From NCBI GenBank assembly GCA_937928215.1, contig CALFWL010000017.1, positions 1-32,319 of the forward strand: a DNA stretch of 32,319 nt, in the 5' to 3' direction. The translations under genes were made by a program, and so were the position numbers. Below, piece by piece: positions 12,778-32,240 of this stretch. Each line of letters opens with the position of its first letter. Positions within the stretch are counted from its first letter, which is position 1. Below the pieces are notes generated by a model. It had not been told where the DNA came from. It saw only the letters and a program-made list of their open reading frames with translations, and made no database searches. Origin of the DNA: an uncultured Pirellulaceae bacterium (GTDB lineage: Bacteria; Planctomycetota; Planctomycetia; Pirellulales; Pirellulaceae).

Positions 12778-14190
12778 TCATTTCACGAGTCTTGTGTCCG
12801 GAAATTGTGATACCCAACCAAACCAAAATACGTTGTGGGATGGCATTCGTTTGCATTCTTTGTCGCCTGACACAAGCCTGTCTTCCAAAACCTGCCATAC
12901 TCGCCCCGCCGAATCAGTGGCCTTGTCGTTACCATTCCAAGACGCGAACTTGAGATCACCTACGTCGTAGGCTCGACTAGCCCCACCTTCATCAGCCAAC
13001 ACCACGATACGTTGCTGACCGATCTTGTCGTGATAAACTTGCTGCTTGGCTAGGAACTTAATTGCGATCGCAAGCTGTTCATCATCGTTGCGAAAAGCAA
13101 GAACTTCATCCTTGTTCAGCAATCGATTGTCCAGTTGCGGCACGCCAAACATCAACTCGTCCGTTGCAAAGTAATCTCTGTATGCGACACCTTCCCCGTA
13201 GTCACGACGGTGCCCGGTCGCCAGAGACAATACCGTCGTGTTGGGATGGCGTTTTTTCCACTCGCCCCACGTCGTCGTGACGAGATAACGTCGATTCAAT
13301 TTGATGTTTTTGCCAACAAGAGGTCCGACGACTGGCTCACCTTTCAAAGTCGACCACAACGACTTTGTACCGTGGTCATACATCAACTTGTTGGAACGGT
13401 AGAGAAACCCGCTGGTACCAAGTTCATGGTGAACCCCATCGACTTTTGCCTGATACACGATCAGAGCCCCGCAAAGCGTTCAGTAGACCCCGCAAACCGC
13501 TTCTCCCCCAATCGTGTCTTTGAACATTTCGTGCCAAGCTAGAATCCGTTTGGGGTAAGCCCTGCTATCACCATTAAGTTCAATCCCAAAAACGACGTCG
13601 GAGTCGTCAAGGTAAGTCGCTTGCTTGGCATCCAGCATTGTGGGGCTCTTCAACGGTGGAATCCCGTCACGACGCACCCCACCCCAACGAATCTCATCCA
13701 ATCGAATTTTTGCACCTTTGGTATCAACAAAATATTCCGAAAATCGGGGATCGATCTTGCCGTAGAGATCCGATTTGAACTTGGCGTACTCCGGGTTATC
13801 GCGATAGTCTTGATTCCAGTTCCATTGCCTCCATTTGTCAAAATCGGACCCGAAACGATTTCCCGTTTTTGATTCAAGAAGACGAACGACTTCCCCTCTT
13901 TCTCTTACCGGCAAAAATCGGGCGACCTCAAGCAGCATGGGCACGTAAGACACGTCCCAGTCGCGTTCGACTATCGCCAAGTTATCTTGAATCGCGCGAG
14001 GATCGCTCAACAGCCTTCTCAGGAAGAAGTCAGCGCTCAGCAGAGTTCGTTCTTGAGCAACGGTGGACAACCGAGTGTTTTCCTGCGAATAACCACTGAC
14101 CGGTAGCTTGGCGAGCAATAGCTCTAAAATCCCAAATGCCGCGAAGCAACCAAACAAAATGAACGCCAACGTCCGAAATCTTTCAGCCAT
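12778..14190 (-). CDS. DUF3179-family protein, candidate selenoprotein with in-frame TGA (Sec237)
   Basis: One continuous frame of 470 codons, broken only by TGA at 13480-13482. The ATG at 14190 has GGAG 6 nt upstream. A single membrane anchor lies at about residues 6-25, putting the rest outside the cytoplasm. The upstream half ends in DSRAYPKRILAWHEMFKD, TIGGEAVCGVY; the downstream half starts TLCGALIVYQAKVDG and continues LGTSGFLYRSNKLMYDHGTKSLW, GEPVVGPLVGK. In DUF3179 homologues the junction reads (T/V)YCPLCG-like, so the TGA replaces the first Cys of CxxC and would give Sec-Thr-Leu-Cys (237-240). A hairpin directly downstream resembles a bacterial SECIS. The family's role is unknown; a UxxC pair suggests thiol/selenol redox chemistry or metal binding. 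The alternative is a nonsense mutation, but both halves remain intact and in frame. Without Sec insertion only a 236-residue truncated protein would be made. Confidence 0.8.
13443..13479 (-). promoter_or_regulatory. Candidate bacterial SECIS element
   Basis: Directly after the UGA the mRNA can fold as follows. Lower stem CUUU (13476-13473) pairs with AAAG (13446-13443). A 5-nt internal segment GCGGG lies on the 5' side. The upper stem is GC, bulged U (13465), then CUGAU pairing with AUCAG and GC. The apical loop CGUGU spans 13459-13455. The loop begins 20 nt after the UGA, similar to about 18 nt in E. coli fdhF. The bulged U and GU in the loop are features that SelB recognises in fdhF-type SECIS elements. 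The folding was done by eye; no energy was computed. Confidence 0.65.
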
Positions 14191-14442: not shown

Positions 14443-17211
14443 CTACTCTTCCGCATCCATGATCTTTTCTTGCAAAGCTGAAATGCGTTCGGCTTGGGCT
14501 TTATCAGGCTTTTTAGTTTTCGCCCGAGCCAAGCTTTTCTTCGCTGCACTCCATTGTTTTTCCTTGACTTGGACCTTGGCCAGTGCGATATGCGACTTGC
14601 AATCGTCCAACTTGCGAACCAGTTCTGACGCAAGATTTTTGGCACGAGTGATTTCCTGTTGCGAAGAGACATCCGAAGAAATCAGAGCATCAATGACATC
14701 GCATGCTGCGCCGTAGCCGAAAGCTTTGTGAGCGTACGTTGGTTTTTTTGGAAGGGACTGATACAAGTTCATCAGCACCGATATTCCTGTTTTCTTGTCC
14801 CCGATATTGACATAAGCGTTTCCCATCAAGTACTCGATCCAATGATTTTGGTCGGCACCAAGTTTGCCACGAACTTTCTCAAGATCTTTGAGAGCTTCGT
14901 CCCATCGGTCGAGTTCGCTAAACGTGCTGCCTCGTCTCAGATAGTAATCAACTCGGTGCGGATATCGCTCCAAGGCGTTGGTATAGTACGCGACCCTCGG
15001 CTCGAACTCTTCTGGCGGTATGCCATACGGAATCTTGCGGATTCGTAAGTTCTTGAACTTCAGTCTGCCGCGATTGCCTTTCCACAAGAAACTAGACAGT
15101 CCGACAAAGGACTCGTTTTCGCTTAGGCCCGGCAATTTGTATATGGGAAGGGGAATATTGTTGATTCGAAACTCGACGCGTTCCGGCCCCCAACTCATCA
15201 CTTCCAGTTTCCGTAAGGGTTCCGCATCATAAGAGCCGTCGCCCAAGGTATGCCAAGAATTCATTGAAGCAACACCACCCTTCATTCGACCACCGAAGAT
15301 ATGCCACCGTGATTTCGAACGCTTCATGCCGTCTCTTAAGATTCCCGCATAGATATTTGAACGTTCAGGATTCTCCACTTCGACTTGAATTTCAATCGGC
15401 GATGGAAAGTGACCGAGAGAGCGAAGGTAAACGCCAGCATCACCGACTCGGTTGTCAAGGACAACCGTGTTTTCGTCAACGAAGTCCCATCGTCCCGTCT
15501 GAATCCACGGATCGATCGTTTTTTCAAACTTCATATCAAGCCAGTCACCGTTGTGGTAATCAACCTCCATCGCAGTGATTTTCTCCCAGGTTTCGAGGTA
15601 ACGCCGAGCGCCGGGAACGTCACGAGCGAGAAGCTCCTGGAAAGCCTGGTTCACCTCTTCGGAAAACTCGACTCCCAATGCCCGCTCGCCTACCATCGGT
15701 TGAATGGCAAATAGCTCGTCCTCGAACTGCTCGTAGGCGATGATTCTGGACTTATCGTACTCCGGTCGGATTCCGTGTTTTTTGAAAACCGATAGCGCTT
15801 CTTGGGTGTTCATATCATTGCCCATCTCCTCCCAAAGCTCTCGCGCTTCGGCGAATTCATCTGCGCGGGTCGCGAGGGCGATCATTCTGGCCAGATAAGT
15901 CACCTGCTGCCGGCCTTTTTGTTTGGAGCCATCCGGGCTGCGCCAAATTGGATGATCAACATATTGACGAAAACACTGCTGGCACTCGCGATAGATGTCC
16001 GGATGAAATTTAAGTTCCTTGTATCTGCCATCGGCGACCAACCAGTCGATATATTTTTCAGGCACCTTGGAATCGAATCGATTAAGATCCCGGCATTTTT
16101 CTGCGAACGCTTGCCGCGATTCTGCACTTCCTCCCCGGTAAACGCCCCGCGATGTCATGACGCCGATATAAGCCCGCGAACAGTCGATTTCTGCGGCGAT
16201 TGCTCGCTTGAACCACTCCCAGGTCGTGCCGGAATCCTGAAGCCCGTCCGCGATAAGATAAGTCATAAAACCGGCCGCTTCAGGGAATTCGGGCCTCAGT
16301 TGGTAGGCCTTGCGAAAATGAACTGCCGCCTTTCCCTGCTCCCGGTCGAGGATGTCCTTGCCCTCAGCGTCATCGTCATTTATTCGACGAGCGTGCCATC
16401 CAATTTCGCGATGGAGCATCCCCTTGAGCATCGCGGCAAGCCAAGGATCATGATACGGTTCGGCCTGATAGCTCTTGATGCAATCCTTCAATCGTTGATG
16501 AGCCGGACTCTTCAGTTGGGTATATCTGACGCGAGCAATGTCATAAATCATCTGAAAGCTAGGTCTTTGACTGTTCGGTTGGCGCGACGCCCATTCTAGG
16601 TAAGCGGGCAGCACGTCAAAAACGCGAACCATGGTTTTGCGAAGCGTGTCGACACGGACACCGATGTCTTGGGCCCTAAAAATAGCGGCCTCGTATTTGA
16701 ATCGCAAACCTCGTGGATAATCTGACTGATCAAATATTCTCGCTGCCTCACTCAGCCGATTCGAACATTCCCGTAACGGAAAGTGGTTCAGAAAAAACAA
16801 TGCATGATAGCGAAGAACGATAGGATCTTTACTGCCTAAACTTAAAGCCTGCTTGGCGAACGACTTGATATCACGGAACCGACATCGATCCGGACAGAGA
16901 CTGGCGGGCATATCTGATTCCCAGTGGGCTGCCCTGACAAGAAATTTCATGGCCACTTCACGAGCGGCCTCGGGGTCCTTCGTGTGTTTTGGATAGAGAT
17001 TTATTTCCGCCATCCGCAACGCCAACCGCTGTTTGCTGTACTCGATGTGGGTCGGCGCATCATCGGAGAACGCGATTTCCGGTCGCTCTTCTGCAAAGCC
17101 AACTGTCGCGACCACAGCCAGAAGAACAACGCTACAGAAATCCGGGCGAATCGGACGCCCCATACCAATCGCCGACAACTGTCTTGGCCAGCAATGTGAT
17201 CTTCTTTTCAT
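14443..17211 (-). CDS. Large exported TPR/beta-sandwich protein of unknown function
   Basis: A 922-residue protein not recognised as a named family. A hydrophobic stretch at about 26-39 (CSVVLLAVVATVGFA, followed by EE) looks like a signal peptide with cleavage after GFA. Residues about 60-520 are helical, with TPR-like helix pairs (KAAVHFRKAYQLRPEFPEAAG; EFAEARELWEEMGND). Residues about 565-730 look like a beta-sandwich of the LamG/DUF1080 type (VGDAGVYLRSLGHFPSPIEIQVEVE; WHIFGGRMKGGVASM; FVGLSSFLWKGNRGRLKFKNLRIRKI). A second TPR-like region follows (RVDYYLRRGSTFSELDRWDEALKDLEKV), ending in a Lys-rich helical tail. The ATG lies 1 nt after the stop of the upstream HEAT-like gene with AGGA 9 nt before it, so translation is probably coupled. 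It could bind glycans or peptides at the cell surface; this is inference only. Confidence 0.85.
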   Translation of the reverse strand: MKRRSHCWPRQLSAIGMGRPIRPDFCSVVLLAVVATVGFAEERPEIAFSDDAPTHIEYSKQRLALRMAEINLYPKHTKDPEAAREVAMKFLVRAAHWESDMPASLCPDRCRFRDIKSFAKQALSLGSKDPIVLRYHALFFLNHFPLRECSNRLSEAARIFDQSDYPRGLRFKYEAAIFRAQDIGVRVDTLRKTMVRVFDVLPAYLEWASRQPNSQRPSFQMIYDIARVRYTQLKSPAHQRLKDCIKSYQAEPYHDPWLAAMLKGMLHREIGWHARRINDDDAEGKDILDREQGKAAVHFRKAYQLRPEFPEAAGFMTYLIADGLQDSGTTWEWFKRAIAAEIDCSRAYIGVMTSRGVYRGGSAESRQAFAEKCRDLNRFDSKVPEKYIDWLVADGRYKELKFHPDIYRECQQCFRQYVDHPIWRSPDGSKQKGRQQVTYLARMIALATRADEFAEARELWEEMGNDMNTQEALSVFKKHGIRPEYDKSRIIAYEQFEDELFAIQPMVGERALGVEFSEEVNQAFQELLARDVPGARRYLETWEKITAMEVDYHNGDWLDMKFEKTIDPWIQTGRWDFVDENTVVLDNRVGDAGVYLRSLGHFPSPIEIQVEVENPERSNIYAGILRDGMKRSKSRWHIFGGRMKGGVASMNSWHTLGDGSYDAEPLRKLEVMSWGPERVEFRINNIPLPIYKLPGLSENESFVGLSSFLWKGNRGRLKFKNLRIRKIPYGIPPEEFEPRVAYYTNALERYPHRVDYYLRRGSTFSELDRWDEALKDLEKVRGKLGADQNHWIEYLMGNAYVNIGDKKTGISVLMNLYQSLPKKPTYAHKAFGYGAACDVIDALISSDVSSQQEITRAKNLASELVRKLDDCKSHIALAKVQVKEKQWSAAKKSLARAKTKKPDKAQAERISALQEKIMDAEE

Positions 17212-17212
17212 A

Positions 17213-17860
17213 TCATTTGATCCTATTTCGCTTTAAAAGAACCGTCCTGTATTTTCGTTTGAGTTGTCTGATCGCTTCCGAGTACCGGGCAGCCTCTCCC
17301 GATTTCTCCTGCTTTTTTTCAAGTCGAGTGATTTGTCGCTGGATGTTGTCGCAAAGCCTCTGGTAAGCCATGCGCTTGGCTCTTTTGGACTTTTCCTCCG
17401 ATGTCAGCGGTCGTTGCGGGTGATCCCGAGCCCACTCGGGCAGTTCGGAATCTGGAGGATCCTGAATCGTCAGCAGATTCTCAACCAGCTTAGAAAACGT
17501 TTTGTCAGTGCGATTCGTTTTTTCAAACTCGCGATCCATCACATCAAGGAGGTCCGCAGAACCGGATTCTTTCATTGAATTCAGCGCTTTCCAAGCGCGA
17601 TAACAGGTCTCTGTTTTGGCACCAGCCGCGGCCTGAACAATCGCCGCGATGGCCGGTTCACCAACTTGCGCAAGAGAGTAGGTCGCCTGCTCTCGATCTG
17701 CAAATCGAGGCGACTCCAGTTGCTCCATCAGCACAGCGATGTCGGAAGCCGACTGGGCCGCAAGGTTGCCTGTCGGTAACGGAATCGATATCAAACACAA
17801 CCCGATGGCGCGGGCAACGCAACTTCGAATGCCAGCAGACGTTTCCGTTCTGCAACCCAT
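17213..17860 (-). CDS. Small exported HEAT-like protein of unknown function
   Basis: About 215 residues. The ATG at 17860 is chosen because GGAG lies 7 nt upstream; a GTG 30 nt earlier is possible. An N-terminal signal sequence is visible (VARAIGLCLISIPLPTG, then NLAAQSA). Next comes a segment resembling one or two HEAT-type repeats (LMEQLESPRFADREQATYSL, then AQVGEPAIAAIVQAAAGAKTE). In planctomycete exported proteins the phrase 'L.s..f.dRe.At..L...G..a' is common. The C-terminal ~70 residues are strongly charged and probably coiled (KSKRAKRMAYQRLCDNIQRQ; LEKKQEKSGEAARYSEAIRQ). It is followed after 1 nt by the 922-residue gene, so the pair likely act together, perhaps in the periplasm or at the surface. 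Confidence 0.75.
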   Translation of the reverse strand: MGCRTETSAGIRSCVARAIGLCLISIPLPTGNLAAQSASDIAVLMEQLESPRFADREQATYSLAQVGEPAIAAIVQAAAGAKTETCYRAWKALNSMKESGSADLLDVMDREFEKTNRTDKTFSKLVENLLTIQDPPDSELPEWARDHPQRPLTSEEKSKRAKRMAYQRLCDNIQRQITRLEKKQEKSGEAARYSEAIRQLKRKYRTVLLKRNRIK

Positions 17861-18011
17861 ATCCCATCTCCAAATCGAACGCTCGCCCACAGAACGCGAG
17901 GATCAGCACGTCGACCTGCTCGTAAACTGTTGCCTTGACGATTCAAAACGGCTCAAAAAAGCGATTGTACTCACTCGCAATCCGTGACGCAAATTGTCCA
18001 GCCAGACATAG

Positions 18012-18037: not shown

Positions 18038-19696
18038 CTAGTCCGCCTCATACACATTCGCCATTCGTTTCAAATGATCAGCCAACGACTCACTGAACAA
18101 ACAGAAACTGTACTCGCGCGAGTTCAGAATGCGACTGGTCTGGATTTGATCGCTCACGCTCGAAAGCGTGTCTTGCAAAGCTGCGATCTGTTCCGCAACG
18201 AACGGCTGCATCGACCGATTCGCTTCCTCGATCGCGTGATGGCGTTCCAAACGAGTCAAGATCGGGCTCTCAATCGCAGCCGTCTTGCTTGCCATCCATT
18301 CGTTGGCGGCGACGGCTTCGATAAATCTTTCAGGGTGAAATCTTCTTTGACGAATTTGTTGACGAACTAACGAAAGATCGCTTGGGACAACGATCGGGGC
18401 ACCCAACGGAAGAAGCATGGTTGCCGTCAACGTGGAAAACGGCGGCAGTCTGACATCAAAGAAATCACTCGCGATCGAGTCCGTCAGCTGATCGTATTTC
18501 GCGCCGCCGATCCCATGCAAGAACAGATCACTAAGAACTAGGCGGCTGTACAACGTTGTGATCAATGCACGAGGACGAATGGCAACGTCGCGCGCAGTGG
18601 ATTCCAATAACGCCGATGGCAGGTCGCTCAGCTGAGTCTCCAGCCGCCAGCCAGCGCGATCTGTCAAGCAAACATCGTTTCCGGAAACTTTCACAAACAA
18701 ACGCTTTCGCTGCGGATGATCTTTGCTCCAAACCCAGAACGGCGACTCCAACCAATCAACATCCTGCTCCAACCTAGGCACCGGATGGGCGTTACTGCGG
18801 ATCCCATGAACATCGCGATACTGAACCAGCCGAGCGTTGTAAACTTCATTGAAACGGGCTTGCGCCGCCAAAATCGACGAAGCGAAATGGGCAAACGAAC
18901 GGGTCCCGGCAATCGTGCTGACCGAGATCTCTAACGTTTGAAGACCGGCATCTTTTTCCAAACGATGACGGCCGGCAGCCAGGATCGACCCCAAAGACGC
19001 CGATCGGCCAAGCGACTTTCGTACCGCTTGAACGTGACGCCACAGCGAAAAAACCAATGGCCTTGCTGACTTTCCCAATGCTGAAAAGCAGCCAGCCAAT
19101 TGTTCCGATATTCGTTCCGCAAATGAATCGAACAGAGCGTCGTCGAGAATCGGACGAACTTCGTGGGGCACCGCCGCGTGGGCCGCATCGATATCAATCA
19201 GTCGGGTCGACGCTTTGCCATCAACCAAAGCAGGGCACTTGATGGCAGCTGGTCCGCTGACGTCGTTGTCAACCACCAAGTTGACGGGCGTTGCTCCCAC
19301 CGATGCACTAACCGATGCAAGCGCAAAGTTTTTGAACCAAACGCCTGGATGAAAAAGCAACGGCTGGTGCCCTGCCATCACGATGGACTGAGGATCTCGC
19401 CCCATCAGATCGACATCGCGATACTGCCGAGTATATTCGCTCGCCAGTCGCAGTAGTTCGGTACGCGCCTGCTGTTTAAGCTTTGCCAGACTCAAGCCGT
19501 TTACATCAACATCATCCATCCATCGGTTGCTGCGAACGCCCCAGTTAGCAACCGTCTGACTCAATGTCGGAATCTGAAGTGATTGACCGGATTCGGTTGG
19601 CGCGCGAAGGCGACGGTACTGCAAATGAGACTCCTCGCGGGAATCGTCATCATGATGGACACCGCCCTCACTCACTTCACCATCATCATCCGACAC
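18038..19696 (-). CDS. BshC-like protein (bacillithiol-synthase family resemblance)
   Basis: About 552 residues. The segment IVMAGHQPLLFHPGVWFKNFALA (about 105-127) parallels the 'VxTGQQPGLxxGPLxxxxK' nucleotide-binding start of BshC, and LFLHGIGGAKYDQLTD (about 391-406) is another conserved block. BshC adds cysteine to GlcN-malate in bacillithiol synthesis, but this protein is divergent and may do something else. The GTG at 19694-19696 is chosen: it overlaps the last codons of the glycosyltransferase gene and has GGGGG 5 nt upstream, indicating translational coupling. The first ~20 residues are acidic and histidine-containing (SDDDGEVSEGGVHHDDDSREE) and may be non-conserved. No bshA or bshB lies in the window. 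Confidence 0.75.
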   Translation of the reverse strand: MSDDDGEVSEGGVHHDDDSREESHLQYRRLRAPTESGQSLQIPTLSQTVANWGVRSNRWMDDVDVNGLSLAKLKQQARTELLRLASEYTRQYRDVDLMGRDPQSIVMAGHQPLLFHPGVWFKNFALASVSASVGATPVNLVVDNDVSGPAAIKCPALVDGKASTRLIDIDAAHAAVPHEVRPILDDALFDSFAERISEQLAGCFSALGKSARPLVFSLWRHVQAVRKSLGRSASLGSILAAGRHRLEKDAGLQTLEISVSTIAGTRSFAHFASSILAAQARFNEVYNARLVQYRDVHGIRSNAHPVPRLEQDVDWLESPFWVWSKDHPQRKRLFVKVSGNDVCLTDRAGWRLETQLSDLPSALLESTARDVAIRPRALITTLYSRLVLSDLFLHGIGGAKYDQLTDSIASDFFDVRLPPFSTLTATMLLPLGAPIVVPSDLSLVRQQIRQRRFHPERFIEAVAANEWMASKTAAIESPILTRLERHHAIEEANRSMQPFVAEQIAALQDTLSSVSDQIQTSRILNSREYSFCLFSESLADHLKRMANVYEAD

Positions 19697-20435
19697 GTTC
19701 GCCCCCGGACAGTCGCAGTTTCTCGCAGTCAACCGGAAGAGCGTGAAACGCTTTGTCCATGATTTCACGGTAGTGATTCATACGAATCTGAGCGTCATCC
19801 AACTTTCCGCCAAATGAACGAGACTCGTCAAGGTAGATTCGTGGCACTGGAATCTCGTGGACCGACAGTTTTTGGCAGGCTGCCTGCACCCACAGCTCCA
19901 ACGGCATCGCGTACCCCGATTCGGTCAGCTTCAACGACTTCAGCGATTCCACACGATACGCTTTGAACCCGCAAAAAGCATCGGACAACCGGAAACCCAG
20001 TCGCTCATTCAAAATACGTGTCACTTGAAAGTTGATCGCGCGACGCTGCTCGGGCGGTGGTGAATCCGCCGAAAAAGATTCCAAGTAGCGACTACCCGAA
20101 ACGATGTCGGCACCGGTTTTTTCAATCACGTCAACAAAGTGTTGAATCCGCTGCGGTTCGTGCTGGCCGTCGCAATCAATCGTGACAATGTACTTGAAGT
20201 TATGAGCGCTCGCATAACCAAATGCGGTTCGCAAGGCCGCGCCGTAACCACGATTGGTTGAGTGTGTGACACGATCGATGTCGTTTCGCTTAGTCAGCAA
20301 CTCCGCCGTTCCATCGGTTGATCCATCGTCAACGACCAGAATGTTTGACGAGTAACGTTTTACCAGATCAAGAACGGGAGAAACCGTTTCGATTTCATTG
20401 TAAACCGGCAGCGCGGTCAGATAAGTTGGATTCAT
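19686..20435 (-). CDS. Family 2 glycosyltransferase (dolichyl-phosphate mannose synthase-like)
   Basis: A 249-residue GT-A fold enzyme with ALPVYNE at the N-terminus, DDGSTDGT (36-43) for nucleotide binding, NRGYGAALRTAF, DCDGQH (87-92) as the metal-binding DxD region, and GSRYL, FCGFKAYR and AMPLELWVQA near the acceptor side. There is no membrane anchor, so it is a soluble or peripheral enzyme acting at the cytoplasmic face. It probably transfers a sugar from a nucleotide donor to a polyprenyl phosphate or similar acceptor. Its 3' end overlaps the start of the BshC-like gene by 11 nt. The 279-nt stretch upstream (20436-20714) has no recognisable gene. Confidence 0.93.
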   Translation of the reverse strand: MNPTYLTALPVYNEIETVSPVLDLVKRYSSNILVVDDGSTDGTAELLTKRNDIDRVTHSTNRGYGAALRTAFGYASAHNFKYIVTIDCDGQHEPQRIQHFVDVIEKTGADIVSGSRYLESFSADSPPPEQRRAINFQVTRILNERLGFRLSDAFCGFKAYRVESLKSLKLTESGYAMPLELWVQAACQKLSVHEIPVPRIYLDESRSFGGKLDDAQIRMNHYREIMDKAFHALPVDCEKLRLSGGERVG

Positions 20436-24378: not shown

Positions 24379-26589
24379 ATGCAGAAAAAAATCGGTCGGA
24401 ACAACATCGTGTTGCTGGGCGTCGGACACACGAACGCTCACGTGTTGCGGATGTGGAAGATGCAACCGTTGGCCGACTCCCAGTTGATCTGCGTTTCGAA
24501 TTTCCCGATCGCGACCTACTCAGGTATGTTACCAGGAGTTCTGGCGGGGCAGTATCCGGCATCGGCAATGGAAATCGATCTGGTGCGACTTTGCAAGTCA
24601 GCGGGAGCTCGATTGGTCGTTAGCGAAGTAACGGGGCTGGACTTGAAACGCCATCGAATCGAGTTCCGGGACCGCCCTCCGCTTGCTTTTGAATTGTTGT
24701 CGATCGGAATTGGGTCGAGGCCCACGTTTTCGGATGTCGATGCGAGTAATGATCAAGCCGTCGTCGCCGTGAAACCGATGCAGACCTTTCTGCCACGACT
24801 GCATGAGCGAATCGATTTGGTTCAGCAATCCAAACCGAGTCAGCCTGTCAGGATCGTGATCGTCGGCGGCGGGATCGGCAGTATCGAGATTGCATTCTGT
24901 CTACAGAAAAGATTCTCGACTTCGGGCCAGCCAGACGTGGACCTATCACTGGTCACAGGAGCCGATCGAGTCGGCGCGGGGCTGTCCAGTTCGTCGCGGC
25001 AGGTCGTCGAAGATCAGTTCAACGCTCGGGGAGTCCGGTTGCACACGGGTCATCGCGTGACGCAGTTTAATGCGGACTCGATCGAGTTAACCAACGGCGA
25101 TCGTGTGGGCTCGGACGTGATCATTTGGGCGACCGGGGCCGCAGCTCCATCCTTGCTAGAGGAATTCGATCTACCCAAGGACGATCGAGGCTTTCTTGCG
25201 ACGCGAAGGACTTTACAGGTGGTCGATCATGACCGCATTTTTGCGGTGGGCGATACCGGCACGATCCAAGAGGACCCAACCGTCAAGGCTGGCGTTTTCG
25301 CAGTTCGCCAAGGACCGGTTCTGTGGGACAACTTGCGTCGATCCATCTGGAAACGGCCGCTGGTCGACTATTCGCCGCAGAGACGTTTCTTGAAACTGGT
25401 CAACACGGCTGACGGCAAGTCGATTGCCGAATACGCGGGGGTGACACGGTACGCTGGATGGGCTTGGCGTTTGAAAGATCGGATCGACCGCCGATTTATG
25501 GCGATGTACCAAGAATATGCTCCAATGCCGATGGCTGCGGAATCGTCAGCGGTTGAAAGTGACGAAGCGATGCGATGTCTCGGTTGCGGTGGGAAAATCG
25601 GCAGCGAGTTGCTCAGTGGAGTCTTGTCGGAACTGGATGTACCCGATCATCCGGACGTACAGATTGGCTTGAAAAATCCCGACGACGCCGCCGTTTTGGT
25701 GACTCATGATAATCGAGTCACCGTGACGACCGATTTTTTCGCTAGTCCCGTGGACGATCCCTATCTAGCGGGTCGCATCGCACTGCTCAATTCGGCCAGC
25801 GACTGTTTCGTCATGGGCGCGCAGCCGACCGGAGCACTCGCGATCGTCCAGCTGCCGCTTGGGCATCCGCGTGGGCAGTTGGAAGTGATGCGAGAATTGA
25901 TGGCGGGAAGCGTCGAAGAGTTGCGAAAAATGGACGCTACCATTGTCGGGGGGCATTCGATCGAAGGGCCTCGCTTGCTGGCGGGGTACACGGTTCTGGG
26001 ACGACAACTAACCGACCCGATGACCAAGGGAATGCTGAAGCCCGGTGACAATCTTGTTTTGTCAAAGCCGGTTGGCAGCGGGGTCGCACTTGCCGCACTG
26101 ATGCAGTGTCGCCTTCCGGGAGAAAGCTATTTATCGCTGGTCGACGTGATGCTTCAGAGCAATCAGATCGCCCTGCGTTTGATTACCGAACGGCTGGTCA
26201 CTGGGATCACAGACGTGACAGGTTTTGGCTTGGCTGGTCATCTGGCGGAAATGCTTGCCAGCAGCAAGTTGTCAGCCGAAATTCGGATGAGCGACATTCC
26301 GGTGCTAGACGGCTGTCAGGAACTGATGGACCAAGGGATTGAAAGCACGCTAACTCCCGATAATCGCATCGTTGCCGGCAAGGTTAACCTTCAAATTGCC
26401 GACGTCCAATCGACTCGTTTCACCGCTCTGTTCGACCCTCAGACGTGCGGCGGGTTGTTGATGGGAGTCTGCGACTCGAACCTCGCAGCCGTGCAGCGAG
26501 TACTTCGGGAAGCCGGATTTGCCGATTCAGCAGTGATCGGCACGGTCGTGCAACCCGACCAAGATCGCAACGAGCTGGTGATCCGATAG
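24379..26589 (+). CDS. selD: NDH-like oxidoreductase fused to SelD (selenide, water dikinase)
   Basis: A 736-residue two-domain protein. Residues 1-385 resemble NADH dehydrogenase-like FAD/NAD(P) oxidoreductases (VLLGVGHTNAHVL at the N-terminus, IVGGGIGSIEIA at 161, ATGAAAPS at 251, and IFAVGDTGTI at 288). Residues about 395-736 form SelD, which makes selenophosphate from selenide and ATP. SelD motifs are LGCGGKIG with the catalytic Cys403 and Lys406, NPDDAAV (433-439), TTDFF, LNSASDCFVMGAQPTGAL, GGHSIEG, DVTGFGLAGHLAEM and DPQTCGGLLMG. The second Cys of the E. coli GCGCK motif is Gly here; it is not essential. The fused flavoprotein may provide or channel reduced selenium. Selenophosphate feeds selenocysteine or 2-selenouridine synthesis. 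It is about 10 kb from the candidate selenoprotein. Confidence 0.95.
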   Translation: MQKKIGRNNIVLLGVGHTNAHVLRMWKMQPLADSQLICVSNFPIATYSGMLPGVLAGQYPASAMEIDLVRLCKSAGARLVVSEVTGLDLKRHRIEFRDRPPLAFELLSIGIGSRPTFSDVDASNDQAVVAVKPMQTFLPRLHERIDLVQQSKPSQPVRIVIVGGGIGSIEIAFCLQKRFSTSGQPDVDLSLVTGADRVGAGLSSSSRQVVEDQFNARGVRLHTGHRVTQFNADSIELTNGDRVGSDVIIWATGAAAPSLLEEFDLPKDDRGFLATRRTLQVVDHDRIFAVGDTGTIQEDPTVKAGVFAVRQGPVLWDNLRRSIWKRPLVDYSPQRRFLKLVNTADGKSIAEYAGVTRYAGWAWRLKDRIDRRFMAMYQEYAPMPMAAESSAVESDEAMRCLGCGGKIGSELLSGVLSELDVPDHPDVQIGLKNPDDAAVLVTHDNRVTVTTDFFASPVDDPYLAGRIALLNSASDCFVMGAQPTGALAIVQLPLGHPRGQLEVMRELMAGSVEELRKMDATIVGGHSIEGPRLLAGYTVLGRQLTDPMTKGMLKPGDNLVLSKPVGSGVALAALMQCRLPGESYLSLVDVMLQSNQIALRLITERLVTGITDVTGFGLAGHLAEMLASSKLSAEIRMSDIPVLDGCQELMDQGIESTLTPDNRIVAGKVNLQIADVQSTRFTALFDPQTCGGLLMGVCDSNLAAVQRVLREAGFADSAVIGTVVQPDQDRNELVIR

Positions 26590-29101: not shown

Positions 29102-29188
29102 GCGGCTGTGGCGGAATTGGCAGACGCGCTAGACTAAGGATCTAGTGACCTATTACTGGTCGTGGAGGTTCAAATCCTCTCAGCCGCA
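29102..29188 (+). tRNA. tRNA-Leu (anticodon AAG)
   Basis: Acceptor stem GCGGCTG (29102-29108) pairs with CAGCCGC (29181-29187), with discriminator A at 29188. The D-arm contains AATTGGCAGA, the anticodon stem is CTAGA/TCTAG with loop CTAAGGA, and the T-arm contains GGTTCAAATCC. The long variable arm (GACC/GGTC stem) and the AAG anticodon at 29136-29138 identify a class II leucine tRNA. The 3' CCA is not encoded and must be added. Position 34 is A, which is rare for bacterial tRNA-Leu (GAG is usual); it would be expected to read CUU, or CUU/CUC/CUA if deaminated to inosine. Confidence 0.96.
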
Positions 29189-29196
29189 CTTCAGGC

Positions 29197-30288: not shown

Positions 30289-31656
30289 TCAAAACACGGT
30301 TTTGCTGTAGAGCTTCGGCCGGAAGATAGGCCGAGGCCGGACAATACGTGCCGCAGGAAGTGGGTAACGCTTGAGCAACGCATTGAACTTGTCCCAAGTC
30401 AGCTCGCGCTGGCGGTTGCGGCGGTTAAGCCACTTGTGCCAGCGACGGTGAACTTCAAACTTGAAACGAGCAATCGCTGCATAGTTTCCCCGAATCCCAA
30501 AGTACGCGTAGTGACCATGAAGTTTCTGACGCAGCTTTAATTGCTGCTCGCTAACAGGCAAGTGACGATTCAAGCGACACCACTGGGCGACCTTCGTGAT
30601 CGCACGAGTGAAACGACTCGAAGAAGTCTTCCGCTTGACGACCCAATTGCCCTGCCGAGACTTGCCCCAGTAGTGGGTGAAGCCCAGTAGGTCAAACGTG
30701 CCCGAAGTTCCCTTGCCGGAATTCGAATCGTTCTCGTCCGCCGAACTCGACGGACGCTCGAAACAGACCAACCGAGTTTTCTCCGGGTGGAGCGTCAAAC
30801 CGTACTTCTCAAAACGCTTCGGCAAGACTTCCATCACGCGGCGGGCGTCACGCTCAGAGCGGAACCCGATCGCGAAATCGTCTGCGAAGCGAATCAGAAA
30901 AGCGTCGCTACCAAGCCGCGGCTTCACCACTTCCTCGAACCACACATCCAGCACATAGTGCAGAAACACGTTCGAAAGTAATGGCGAGATCACACCGCCT
31001 TGCGGGCTACCGGATTCGGGGAAACTAACGTTCCCGTCTTCCATCACGCCCGCCTTGAGCCACTTGTTGATTAGCTTTTTCAGCACTCCATCATTCACCC
31101 GATGCTGGATGAAGTTTCGCAAGAATTTATGATCCAGATGATCGAAAAATTTACGGATATCGACCTCCAAAATCCAGCCGCCTTTGATGTCCATCGTCTG
31201 CTTCCAAAGCGATTCCAAAGCCTGGTGGGCCGATCGCTGTCGCCGGAATCCGTACGAACAGTCCAGAAAGTCCTGTTCATAAATCGGGTCCAGCAGCATC
31301 ACCACCGCACGCTGGAGAATCTTGTCCTCAAGCGTCGGGATGCCAATCGGGCGGACTTCGTCAGTCGAAGTCCCTTTGGGAATGTAGACTCGGCGAACCG
31401 GTGGGGCACGATAGCTACCCGACTTGGCACGTTCAAGAAGCCGCTGAAGGTTGCCTTCAAGGTCTTGTTCGTACTCCGCCGCAGTGACGTTGTCGACGCC
31501 CGCTGCTCCGGTTTTACGAGTCTGATGATAAGCTTCAAAAAGCCAGTCGAGGTCCACCAAATAGGCCAGAGACGTGAAGGCCATGTCCGGCGATTGCTTC
31601 GCCAGCGTGGCTATCCGTTGCTGTTTCGTGGACACTTCAATTGAATTACAACGCAT
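30289..31656 (-). CDS. ltrA: Group II intron reverse transcriptase/maturase
   Basis: A 455-residue intron-encoded protein. It contains reverse transcriptase blocks RT0-7: GAAGVDNVTAAEYEQ, YRAPPVRRVYIPK, RPIGIPTLEDKILQ, CSYGFRRQRSAHQAL, the catalytic strands EVDIRKFFDHLDH (164-176) and IRFADDFAIGF (FADD at 257-260), and SPQGGVISPLLSNVF (217-231). A maturase/X domain of the GIIM type follows (about 325-405, LLGFTHYWGKSRQGNWVVKRKTS, LHGHYAYFGIRGN). There is no C-terminal HNH endonuclease domain, so target-primed mobility would need another primer, as in endonuclease-minus introns. The frame is intact and both catalytic aspartates are present, so the element may be active. Confidence 0.95.
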   Translation of the reverse strand: MRCNSIEVSTKQQRIATLAKQSPDMAFTSLAYLVDLDWLFEAYHQTRKTGAAGVDNVTAAEYEQDLEGNLQRLLERAKSGSYRAPPVRRVYIPKGTSTDEVRPIGIPTLEDKILQRAVVMLLDPIYEQDFLDCSYGFRRQRSAHQALESLWKQTMDIKGGWILEVDIRKFFDHLDHKFLRNFIQHRVNDGVLKKLINKWLKAGVMEDGNVSFPESGSPQGGVISPLLSNVFLHYVLDVWFEEVVKPRLGSDAFLIRFADDFAIGFRSERDARRVMEVLPKRFEKYGLTLHPEKTRLVCFERPSSSADENDSNSGKGTSGTFDLLGFTHYWGKSRQGNWVVKRKTSSSRFTRAITKVAQWCRLNRHLPVSEQQLKLRQKLHGHYAYFGIRGNYAAIARFKFEVHRRWHKWLNRRNRQRELTWDKFNALLKRYPLPAARIVRPRPIFRPKLYSKTVF

Positions 31657-32240
31657 TCAAAGTGTTTCCCAATAACGGGTCCATGTTTCGGTGTCTCGCT
31701 TCCCTCGTCCGGGTCCGACTGGGCGTCGTTCCCCGTGCTCACCAGTACTATCAAGACACTATGACTTCCTGCAATCCGTCTCGCTTCGCTTCGTTTTCCT
31801 TCGCTCGGCGATACCATACTTGCATCCGGTTCGCTCTGGCAAGTTGGATGCGGTTCTTGCCAGCCGGGAGCTTTGAGTTGACCGCTGCTCCGACGCGGTG
31901 GTTGAGTATGGAGATGACAGGACCTCCCAAGTTCCTGGGCGACCCCAATGTTCCGTTTGCTCATGCTCAGACGACTCCGGTGAGACGACAGGTTCCAGAC
32001 CGTGACGTTCGTGAACGTCGTTTCAGAACTGCCGCATGGCCCCCGCTAAGGGAACGACAAAGGCTCTCACGTGGAACAAGACTTTCGAAGCTCAATCACA
32101 TGGCTTTCGGACTGGCTGTCTACGCTTCGTCGAGAGGGTTACCAAAATGTCGTCGCAACTCACTTTGCGTTACGCAACAACAACTCGACGCAAGACTCGC
32201 TTCTGGCCGTTGGTCAGACGCTACCAGACGGGATTCACAC

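What the first reader, a model, noticed from the sequence alone, without database searches (positions are those of the whole stretch)
13480..13482. In-frame TGA replaces the first Cys of the CxxC motif in a DUF3179 protein: candidate new selenoprotein
Seen: a 470-codon frame (14190 down to 12778) is broken by a single TGA; both sides are full DUF3179-type sequence, in the same frame, with no deletion. The junction reads Gly-Val-Tyr-TGA-Thr-Leu-Cys-Gly. Known from memory: DUF3179 homologues have Tyr-Cys-Pro-Leu-Cys-Gly at this point. A TGA exactly at a conserved Cys, leaving UxxC, is the classical sign of selenocysteine. A SECIS-like hairpin follows, and a selD gene is in the same window. Inference: an exported or membrane-anchored selenoprotein with a redox or metal site, in a family that I do not know to be described as selenoprotein. 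Standard gene callers would split it in two.
Basis: partly seen in the sequence, partly recalled or inferred. Interest (0 to 1): 0.93.

Follow-up and report, generated by a model that had tools for sequence, protein, structure and literature searches.

The report
Planctomycete selenoprotein of the DUF3179 family
A planctomycete bacterium carries a gene with a stop codon (UGA) exactly where its uninterrupted relatives have a cysteine; that codon is predicted to be read as the selenium amino acid selenocysteine, which makes this a likely further member of a little-studied, already listed selenoprotein family that recurs in many planctomycetes and is apparently cut in two by gene-finding software.

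Summary
A 470-codon DUF3179 frame (14190-12781, stop 12780-12778, minus strand) is interrupted only by the TGA at 13482-13480, at the first Cys of Y-C-T-L-C-G. The 120 best-listed uninterrupted homologues all have Cys there. The genome has selA, tRNA-Sec (anticodon TCA), selD (in the window) and selB (cut by a contig edge).

The TGA is not decay: of 72 fetched loci flagged with one in-frame TGA, 71 have it at this codon. A bSECIS-type hairpin follows. Codon +6 is the exact reverse complement of codon +10 in 42 of 72 TGA sites, against 1 of 43 Cys sites. Genomes with the TGA form carry Sec genes more often than those without.

The claim of a new selenoprotein family is wrong: two reviews already list DUF3179 ("UxxC/T"). 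What I did not find in print is its spread (at least 53 of 139 DUF3179-bearing Planctomycetota genomes), a long-form Sec clade nested among Cys forms (likely Cys-to-Sec gain, perhaps twice), apparent systematic gene splitting (97 of 120 listed C-terminal pieces have one of two lengths), and a predicted cluster-less Rieske-like fold. Function is inferred: a membrane-anchored UxxC redox protein.

The parts
12778..14190 (-). DUF3179 gene, 470 codons plus stop TGA; start ATG 14190, in-frame UGA at codon 237
   Evidence: single frame, PF11376 247.6 bits across the TGA
13480..13482 (-). UGA codon 237, predicted selenocysteine (first position of UxxC)
   Evidence: Cys in 120 of 120 listed uninterrupted homologues, TGA at the same codon in 71 of 72 fetched TGA-flagged loci (window included) and in 10 of 80 named loci
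13448..13467 (-). bSECIS-type hairpin inside the coding sequence: upper stem CUGAU/AUCAG plus two lower pairs, apical loop CGUGU at 13459-13455, 20 nt after the UGA
   Evidence: loop position and stem kept in Sec relatives; the 36 to 45 nt from the UGA fold at -8.3 kcal/mol, hairpin alone -6.3
13471..13473 (-). Cys240 codon, second position of UxxC (inferred resolving Cys)
   Evidence: C in 62 of 72 Sec sites, A in 8, T in 2; invariant in the 49 long forms of alignment A2
14110..14187 (-). N-terminal helix, residues 2-27, inferred membrane anchor or signal anchor
   Evidence: (helix 2-27) and hydrophobic sequence; no signal-peptide program was available
13228..13596 (-). Sec-bearing domain, residues about 199-321, predicted Rieske-like fold without the Rieske cluster ligands
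12784..13107 (-). second copy of a similar fold without a Cys at the matching place, residues about 362-469
24379..26589 (+). selD fused to an N-terminal pyridine-nucleotide-disulfide oxidoreductase domain
   Evidence: TIGR00476 258.7 bits (cut-off 125), TIGR03169 369.7 bits (cut-off 310)

Best explanation
This is a DUF3179 gene whose in-frame UGA stands at a codon that is cysteine in all 120 listed uninterrupted homologues, and it is predicted to be decoded as selenocysteine, giving a likely membrane-anchored UxxC redox protein. SHOWN by sequence: the frame, the aligned Cys, the recurrence of UGA at the same codon, the hairpin conserved at a fixed distance with compensating codon changes, and the presence of selA, selB, selC and selD. 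INFERRED: SelB bound to the hairpin delivers Sec-tRNA to the UGA. The protein is anchored by its N-terminal helix with the UxxC on the outer face. Sec237 acts as the attacking redox residue and Cys240, where present, resolves it, in a thiol or selenol oxidoreductase reaction on a substrate not yet known. PREDICTED: the UxxC lies in a beta-hairpin of the first of two Rieske-like domains that lack the Rieske cluster ligands. In the long-form subfamily Sec probably replaced an ancestral Cys.
For: Cys at the site in 120 of 120 listed homologues (the protein list can hold only uninterrupted proteins). TGA at exactly this codon in 71 of 72 fetched loci flagged with one TGA; 72 sites, all with different downstream DNA. 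Named relatives: 10 of 80 have TGA at the codon, 8 Pirellulaceae and 2 Verrucomicrobiota. Codon +6 is the exact reverse complement of codon +10 in 42 of 72 TGA sites against 1 of 43 Cys sites; 0 of 5000 shuffles reached 42 (mean 8.2, maximum 17). Stem pairs 346 of 432 in register, at most 209 when slid by 1 to 3. Best hairpin loop starts 20-22 nt after the codon in 64 of 72 TGA and 13 of 43 Cys sites. selA 478 bits, selB 301.5 bits, over cut-off but partial (profile 2-256 of 581, at a contig end), tRNA-Sec 71.1 bits with anticodon tca, selD. Of 53 phylum genomes with a listed TGA match, 49 have selA (E at or below 1e-70) or tRNA-Sec (at or below 1e-10); of 66 with only uninterrupted listed matches, 37 do (Fisher p 8.7e-6). 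With every tRNA-Sec match over Rfam's own cut-off counted: 50 of 53 against 41 of 66 (p 2.5e-5); with selA alone: 48 of 53 against 35 of 66 (p 7.0e-6). TGA is also an ordinary stop here: 9 of 24 main window ORFs end in it.
Against: No protein-level evidence. The 63 nt from the UGA fold no better than shuffles, and the isolated hairpin (-6.3) misses the -7.5 kcal/mol rule, which is met only with the UGA-proximal bases included (-8.3). One TGA-flagged locus (L119) has TGC at the site and its TGA seven codons earlier. Six fetched first domains have His, Ser or Asn at the site, so the residue is not universal. Of 53 TGA genomes four lacked selA and a strong tRNA-Sec; two of these have SelB over cut-off (G164, G173), while G212 (77% complete) has none of the three and G061 (90% complete) only a weak tRNA-Sec match, E 8.1e-9, over Rfam's cut-off. 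Of the 10 named Sec genomes 7 have SelB over cut-off, L208 is just under it (238.2 of 242.25 bits), L142 and L155 showed none. Redox role, topology and fold are predictions. The Rieske-like match has no Foldseek E-value at or below 0.001.
Confidence: 0.92

Rival explanations
1. The TGA is a nonsense mutation or a sequencing error in a gene that is decaying.
For: One base separates TGA from TGC/TGT; the assembly has 247 contigs.
Against: Same codon is TGA in 71 of 72 fetched TGA-flagged loci and in two named Verrucomicrobiota loci. The downstream half stays open and conserved. The codon +6/+10 pairing is kept.
Confidence: 0.02
2. The UGA is a real stop and two separate polypeptides are made, or UGA is read through at low level by a near-cognate tRNA (Trp), without selenium.
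For: A GTG (13458) eight codons after the UGA could start a 226-aa product; the protein database holds many such 226-aa entries.
Against: The second product would start inside a predicted beta strand (residues 242-247). The database pieces are what gene callers would produce. Neither idea explains the Cys-to-UGA match, the covarying hairpin, or the link with sel genes.
Confidence: 0.04
3. A genome-wide code change (UGA read as Trp or Cys) makes the frame open.
For: The frame is open if TGA is a residue.
Against: TGA ends this very gene and 9 of 24 main window ORFs in all. Among the 140 domain hits that cover the site only 3 held any other in-frame TGA. tRNA-Sec with anticodon tca is present.
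Confidence: 0.01
4. Selenocysteine is inserted, but UxxC is a metal site (for instance with the conserved His220) rather than a thiol or selenol redox centre.
For: His220 and Cys240 are invariant together with C/U237 in 49 long forms. The domain is predicted to have the fold of a metal-cluster family.
Against: Cys240 is Ala or Thr in 10 of 72 Sec sites. By alignment ranges the site does not coincide with the Rieske cluster loops (ligand positions recalled). No coordinates were available to measure the distance to His220.
Confidence: 0.2

Closest known systems
DUF3179 selenoproteins (PF11376, motif UxxC/T) in the tables of PMC9312934 and PMC13188914
   Same: Same Pfam family, Sec at the first position of the motif.
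   Different: In the passages seen each gives a table row only, and the word planctomycet does not occur in either main text. This one belongs to a 470-aa long form with an extra helical N-terminal part; Sec copies with Ala at the second position also occur (8 of 72).
Bacterial SECIS (bSECIS) of the consensus model in PMC13188914
   Different: The best loop starts at exactly 20 nt in 42 of 72 copies, and the window's loop CGUGU recurs in many of them; energy of the hairpin alone is above the stated limit.
Rieske-fold proteins, nearest NirD-type subunits (3c0d, 4aiv, 2jo6) and Rieske ferredoxins
   Same: Predicted fold of the Sec domain; NirD is recalled to be a cluster-less Rieske fold.
   Different: No CxH and no CxxH in the sequence; carries UxxC in another place; a second similar domain follows.
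Cys-to-Sec conversions described by Zhang et al. 2006 (PMC1794560; passages read)
   Same: UxxC redox motif, rarer Sec among widespread Cys forms, Sec nested in the Cys tree.
   Different: That paper does not use the name DUF3179 (it is not among the three papers); here the hairpin residues (Leu+6, Gln+10) differ from most Cys forms (Met+6, Asp+10).

Membership tests
DUF3179 (PF11376) | Profile match over the curated cut-off | tested here: met
   247.6 bits, cut-off 27, profile 1-292 of 292
DUF3179 (PF11376) | Cys (or Sec) at the motif position | tested here: met
   Cys in 120 of 120 listed homologues; six fetched distant first domains have H, S or N
Bacterial Sec-decoding genome | selA, selB, selC, selD in the genome | tested here: met
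   selB is partial at a contig end, full length in the same-genus genome G454
bSECIS element | 3-9 nt loop, G in first two positions, 16-37 nt spacing, stem of 4-16 bp | tested here: met
   loop CGUGU, spacing 20, 5-bp upper stem plus 2 lower pairs; rule as printed in PMC13188914
bSECIS element | Minimum free energy at or below -7.5 kcal/mol | tested here: inconclusive
   -8.3 for the 36 to 45 nt from the UGA (includes a separate 3-bp hairpin), -6.9 for 35 nt, -6.3 for the hairpin alone
bSECIS element | Drives Sec insertion through SelB | not testable with these tools
   needs a reporter
Selenoprotein | Selenocysteine present in the protein | not testable with these tools
   needs mass spectrometry or 75Se
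Rieske protein | Rieske fold | tested here: inconclusive
Rieske protein | CxH...CxxH ligands of the [2Fe-2S] cluster (recalled) | tested here: not met
   no CxH and no CxxH in the 470 residues
Thioredoxin-fold selenoproteins | Thioredoxin fold | tested here: inconclusive
   none among the listed fold matches, which does not exclude it

The most novel reading that the evidence does not exclude
DUF3179 is the first selenoenzyme family on a Rieske-type fold: a cluster-less tandem Rieske domain in which a UxxC site took over the redox role. It is a major selenoprotein family of Planctomycetota, hidden because gene callers cut it at the UGA. In its long form Sec was gained from Cys at least twice (Pirellulaceae and Verrucomicrobiota), each time by reshaping the coding sequence just downstream into a SECIS hairpin.
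Probability: 0.4. Interest if true: 0.7.

Novelty: new member of a known kind. Interest (0 to 1): 0.5.

Why it matters
It turns a table entry into a testable selenoprotein family: a large, recurring, apparently mis-annotated protein in planctomycetes with related Cys and Sec forms in sister lineages, which is a clean pair for asking what Sec adds. The reverse-complement relation between codons +6 and +10 gives a simple coding-level signature of this bSECIS that could help to find split genes in databases. The predicted Rieske-like fold gives a first structural idea for PF11376.

Tried and rejected
Genomic context as a clue to function: none of ten neighbouring window genes has a match (E 1e-8) in the 86 long-form loci compared, which hold up to 5 kb on each side, while both halves of the DUF3179 gene are found in all 86 as a control. 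Among nine Sec loci only the two DUF3179 halves are shared by all. A first run failed for the neighbours because the wrong record was read as the window. Sequence search of the solved structures with the whole protein and with the domain profile: nothing significant. Profile comparison of the two repeats in the long form: weak (E 0.026, probability 1.9), so the duplication rests on the models and on profile hits in other members. A Rieske-ligand reading of H220...C237-x-x-C240 (spacing like CxH-x16-CxxH) looked tempting but does not fit: for 7bui_D the ranges 23-122 and 6-98 with 89 aligned residues put the first ligand Cys (residue 46, recalled) at model 59-74, while U237 is model 51. AU test of all long-form Sec rows as one clade: not rejected (p 0.118), although well-supported branches separate them, so two gains are favoured, not proven. 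Rfam at gathering threshold listed only an intron and a tRNA in the window, no SECIS. PMC4807772 reports selenoproteins in two planctomycete genomes (passages read); its candidate list is in a supplement, and no supplement look-ups were allowed. In PMC2398784 (passages read) a family OS_HP1 with UxxC has 1 Sec and 69 Cys members; from the order of the review tables I suspect, but did not show, that this is DUF3179. The third paper naming DUF3179, PMC9230427, I saw only in the search listing.

Full report
WHAT IS THERE. On the minus strand an ATG at 14190 opens a 470-codon frame that ends with TGA at 12780-12778 and is broken only by TGA at 13482-13480. PF11376 (DUF3179) matches through the TGA, 247.6 bits; the piece after the TGA alone scores 152.8. 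The genome (4.15 Mb in 247 contigs, 92% complete) has one DUF3179 match, this one.

IS THE TGA AT A CONSERVED CYS. Yes. The best 120 of 7062 homologous proteins have Cys there in 120 of 120 (119 YCTLCG, 1 FCTLCG). A protein database lists only uninterrupted proteins of similar length, so Sec forms could not appear in that list.

IS IT RECURRENT. In 392 Planctomycetota genomes DUF3179 was found in 139, and 53 of these have at least one listed match with exactly one in-frame TGA (not all matches were listed, so 53 is a lower bound). I fetched stretches for part of the listed matches. The 169 domain hits have at the aligned codon: 72 TGA, 43 TGC or TGT, 25 other codons, 29 not covered. Of the 25 others, 19 are second copies in open stretches that have TGA in the first copy (13 of the 19 Asp), and 6 are first domains with His, Ser or Asn. 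Of 72 fetched loci that had been flagged with one TGA, 71 have it at this codon; L119 does not. The 72 to 43 ratio reflects my choice of rows and is not a prevalence. A same-genus genome (G454, 69% identity) has the TGA too. Among 80 named loci from genome contigs, 10 have TGA: L138-L144 and L155 (Pirellulaceae, one titled Mariniblastus sp.) and L181 and L208 (Verrucomicrobiota). L140 and L049 are identical in the tree and are taken as the same gene.

SECIS. The hairpin after the window's UGA has the loop CGUGU, 20 nt from the UGA. Over the 72 TGA sites the best local hairpin starts its loop at 20-22 nt in 64, against 13 of 43 Cys sites; its energy is lower (mean -9.8 against -6.6, Mann-Whitney p 7e-6). 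The sharpest test: codon +6 is the exact reverse complement of codon +10 in 42 of 72 TGA sites (8 different codon pairs, such as GGC/GCC, GCC/GGC, GCT/AGC, GGA/TCC, GCG/CGC and CTG/CAG) and in 1 of 43 Cys sites; 5000 shuffles of the TGA set gave a mean of 8.2 and a maximum of 17. Shuffles do not remove relatedness between sequences. The amino acids thus appear to change together so as to keep a stem in the RNA. In the window's subfamily the Pirellulaceae Sec forms have Leu+6 (CTG) and Gln+10 (CAG), where the 120 Cys homologues have mostly Met (110) and Asp (73); Leu with Gln occurs in 1 of 120. Among long forms the isolated hairpins of 11 Sec loci are modestly stabler than those of 70 Cys loci (p 5e-4), and one Cys locus (-8.6) folds better than any Sec one (-6.3 at best). 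The two verrucomicrobial Sec genes lack the CTG/CAG pair and have a weaker 4-bp stem.

SEC MACHINERY. selA 478 bits, selB 301.5 bits over cut-off but partial at a contig end, tRNA-Sec 71.1 bits, anticodon tca, selD in the window. In the phylum set selA was over cut-off in 239 of 392 and tRNA-Sec in 250 of 392 genomes. For the association I counted selA at E 1e-70 or better, or tRNA-Sec at 1e-10 or better, because the control genomes suggest that Rfam's cut-off also admits weak matches: 49 of 53 genomes with a listed TGA copy, 37 of 66 with only uninterrupted listed matches (Fisher p 8.7e-6). With all tRNA-Sec matches over Rfam's cut-off: 50 of 53 and 41 of 66 (p 2.5e-5); with selA alone 48 of 53 and 35 of 66 (p 7.0e-6). 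Genomes are related, so these p-values are only a guide. Of the four misses two have SelB over cut-off (G164, G173) and two do not (G212, G061). Of the 10 genomes of named TGA loci, 7 have SelB over cut-off (L138-L141, L143, L144, L181), L208 has a piece just under it, and L142 and L155 showed none; of five Cys-form genomes 3 have it.

GENE CALLERS SEEM TO SPLIT IT. Searching with the 226-aa piece after the UGA returned 120 listed proteins of 1353 (one of the 120 is the window's own): 72 are exactly 226 aa and 25 exactly 201 aa. In 76 the conserved TSGFLYRSN lies at the offset expected of a start eight codons after the TGA position, and none has TLCG in its first 60 residues. Full-length proteins were excluded by the tool's length limits. 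This is what splitting at the UGA would give; I did not see the DNA of these entries.

EVOLUTION. In a tree of 96 rows (90 long forms, 6 outgroups) and in a second tree without the trait stretch (86 rows), Sec needs two changes, and well-supported branches force two: in the first tree one Pirellulaceae clade (99/95) and one verrucomicrobial pair (100/100), both inside Cys forms. Holding all Sec rows together costs 14.1 log units but is not rejected (AU p 0.118). Cys-to-Sec gain is the simplest direction; two gains are favoured but not proven. The outgroups are long branches, so the root is unsure. Cys-to-Sec gains in UxxC families are an established pattern (PMC1794560, passages).

NOVELTY. 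In the library only three papers contain DUF3179 and one contains PF11376. Two list it as a selenoprotein family. The words planctomycet and, in the 2026 review, pirellul and verrucomicrob do not occur in their main texts. A search for Rieske, selenocysteine and fold listed ten of 30 papers, none about such a protein by title. The study credited by the reviews is not held. So the family claim is known; the spread, the codon signature, the long-form Sec clades and the fold idea were not found in what I could read.

Noticed in passing
24379-26589: selD is fused to a pyridine-nucleotide-disulfide oxidoreductase domain; NCBIfam also knows a look-alike 'fusion_not_SelD' (TIGR04369), whose cut-off this one does not reach (427 of 700 bits), while TIGR00476 selD is well over its cut-off.
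   Followed up: partly
30289-32237: Group II intron at the end of the window: Rfam D1D4-6 match at 31964-32237 (minus) and a reverse-transcriptase ORF at 30289-31656.
   Followed up: no
29102-29189: tRNA-Leu with anticodon AAG, which is unusual in bacteria as far as I recall.
   Followed up: no
L123, and genome G407: Two Sec-type DUF3179 domains in one stretch in L123; G407 has eight DUF3179 matches, several with one TGA and one with two TGA.
   Followed up: no
L111, L113, L114, L115, L116, L117: DUF3179 domains in which the Cys/Sec position is Asn, His or Ser, so some branches of the family must work without a thiol or selenol there.
   Followed up: no
L044, L046, L047, L071, L072, L076, L101, L130: Sec copies with Ala at the second motif position, a form not in the review table rows seen (UxxC/T).
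   Followed up: partly
18038-20435: A 576-aa ORF without any Pfam match (18038-19768) overlaps a family-2 glycosyltransferase gene (19686-20435) by about 80 bases.
   Followed up: no
14443-17890: Upstream of the selenoprotein gene are a 922-aa protein with weak TPR matches and a small protein with a weak HEAT match, not found next to the relatives compared.
   Followed up: partly
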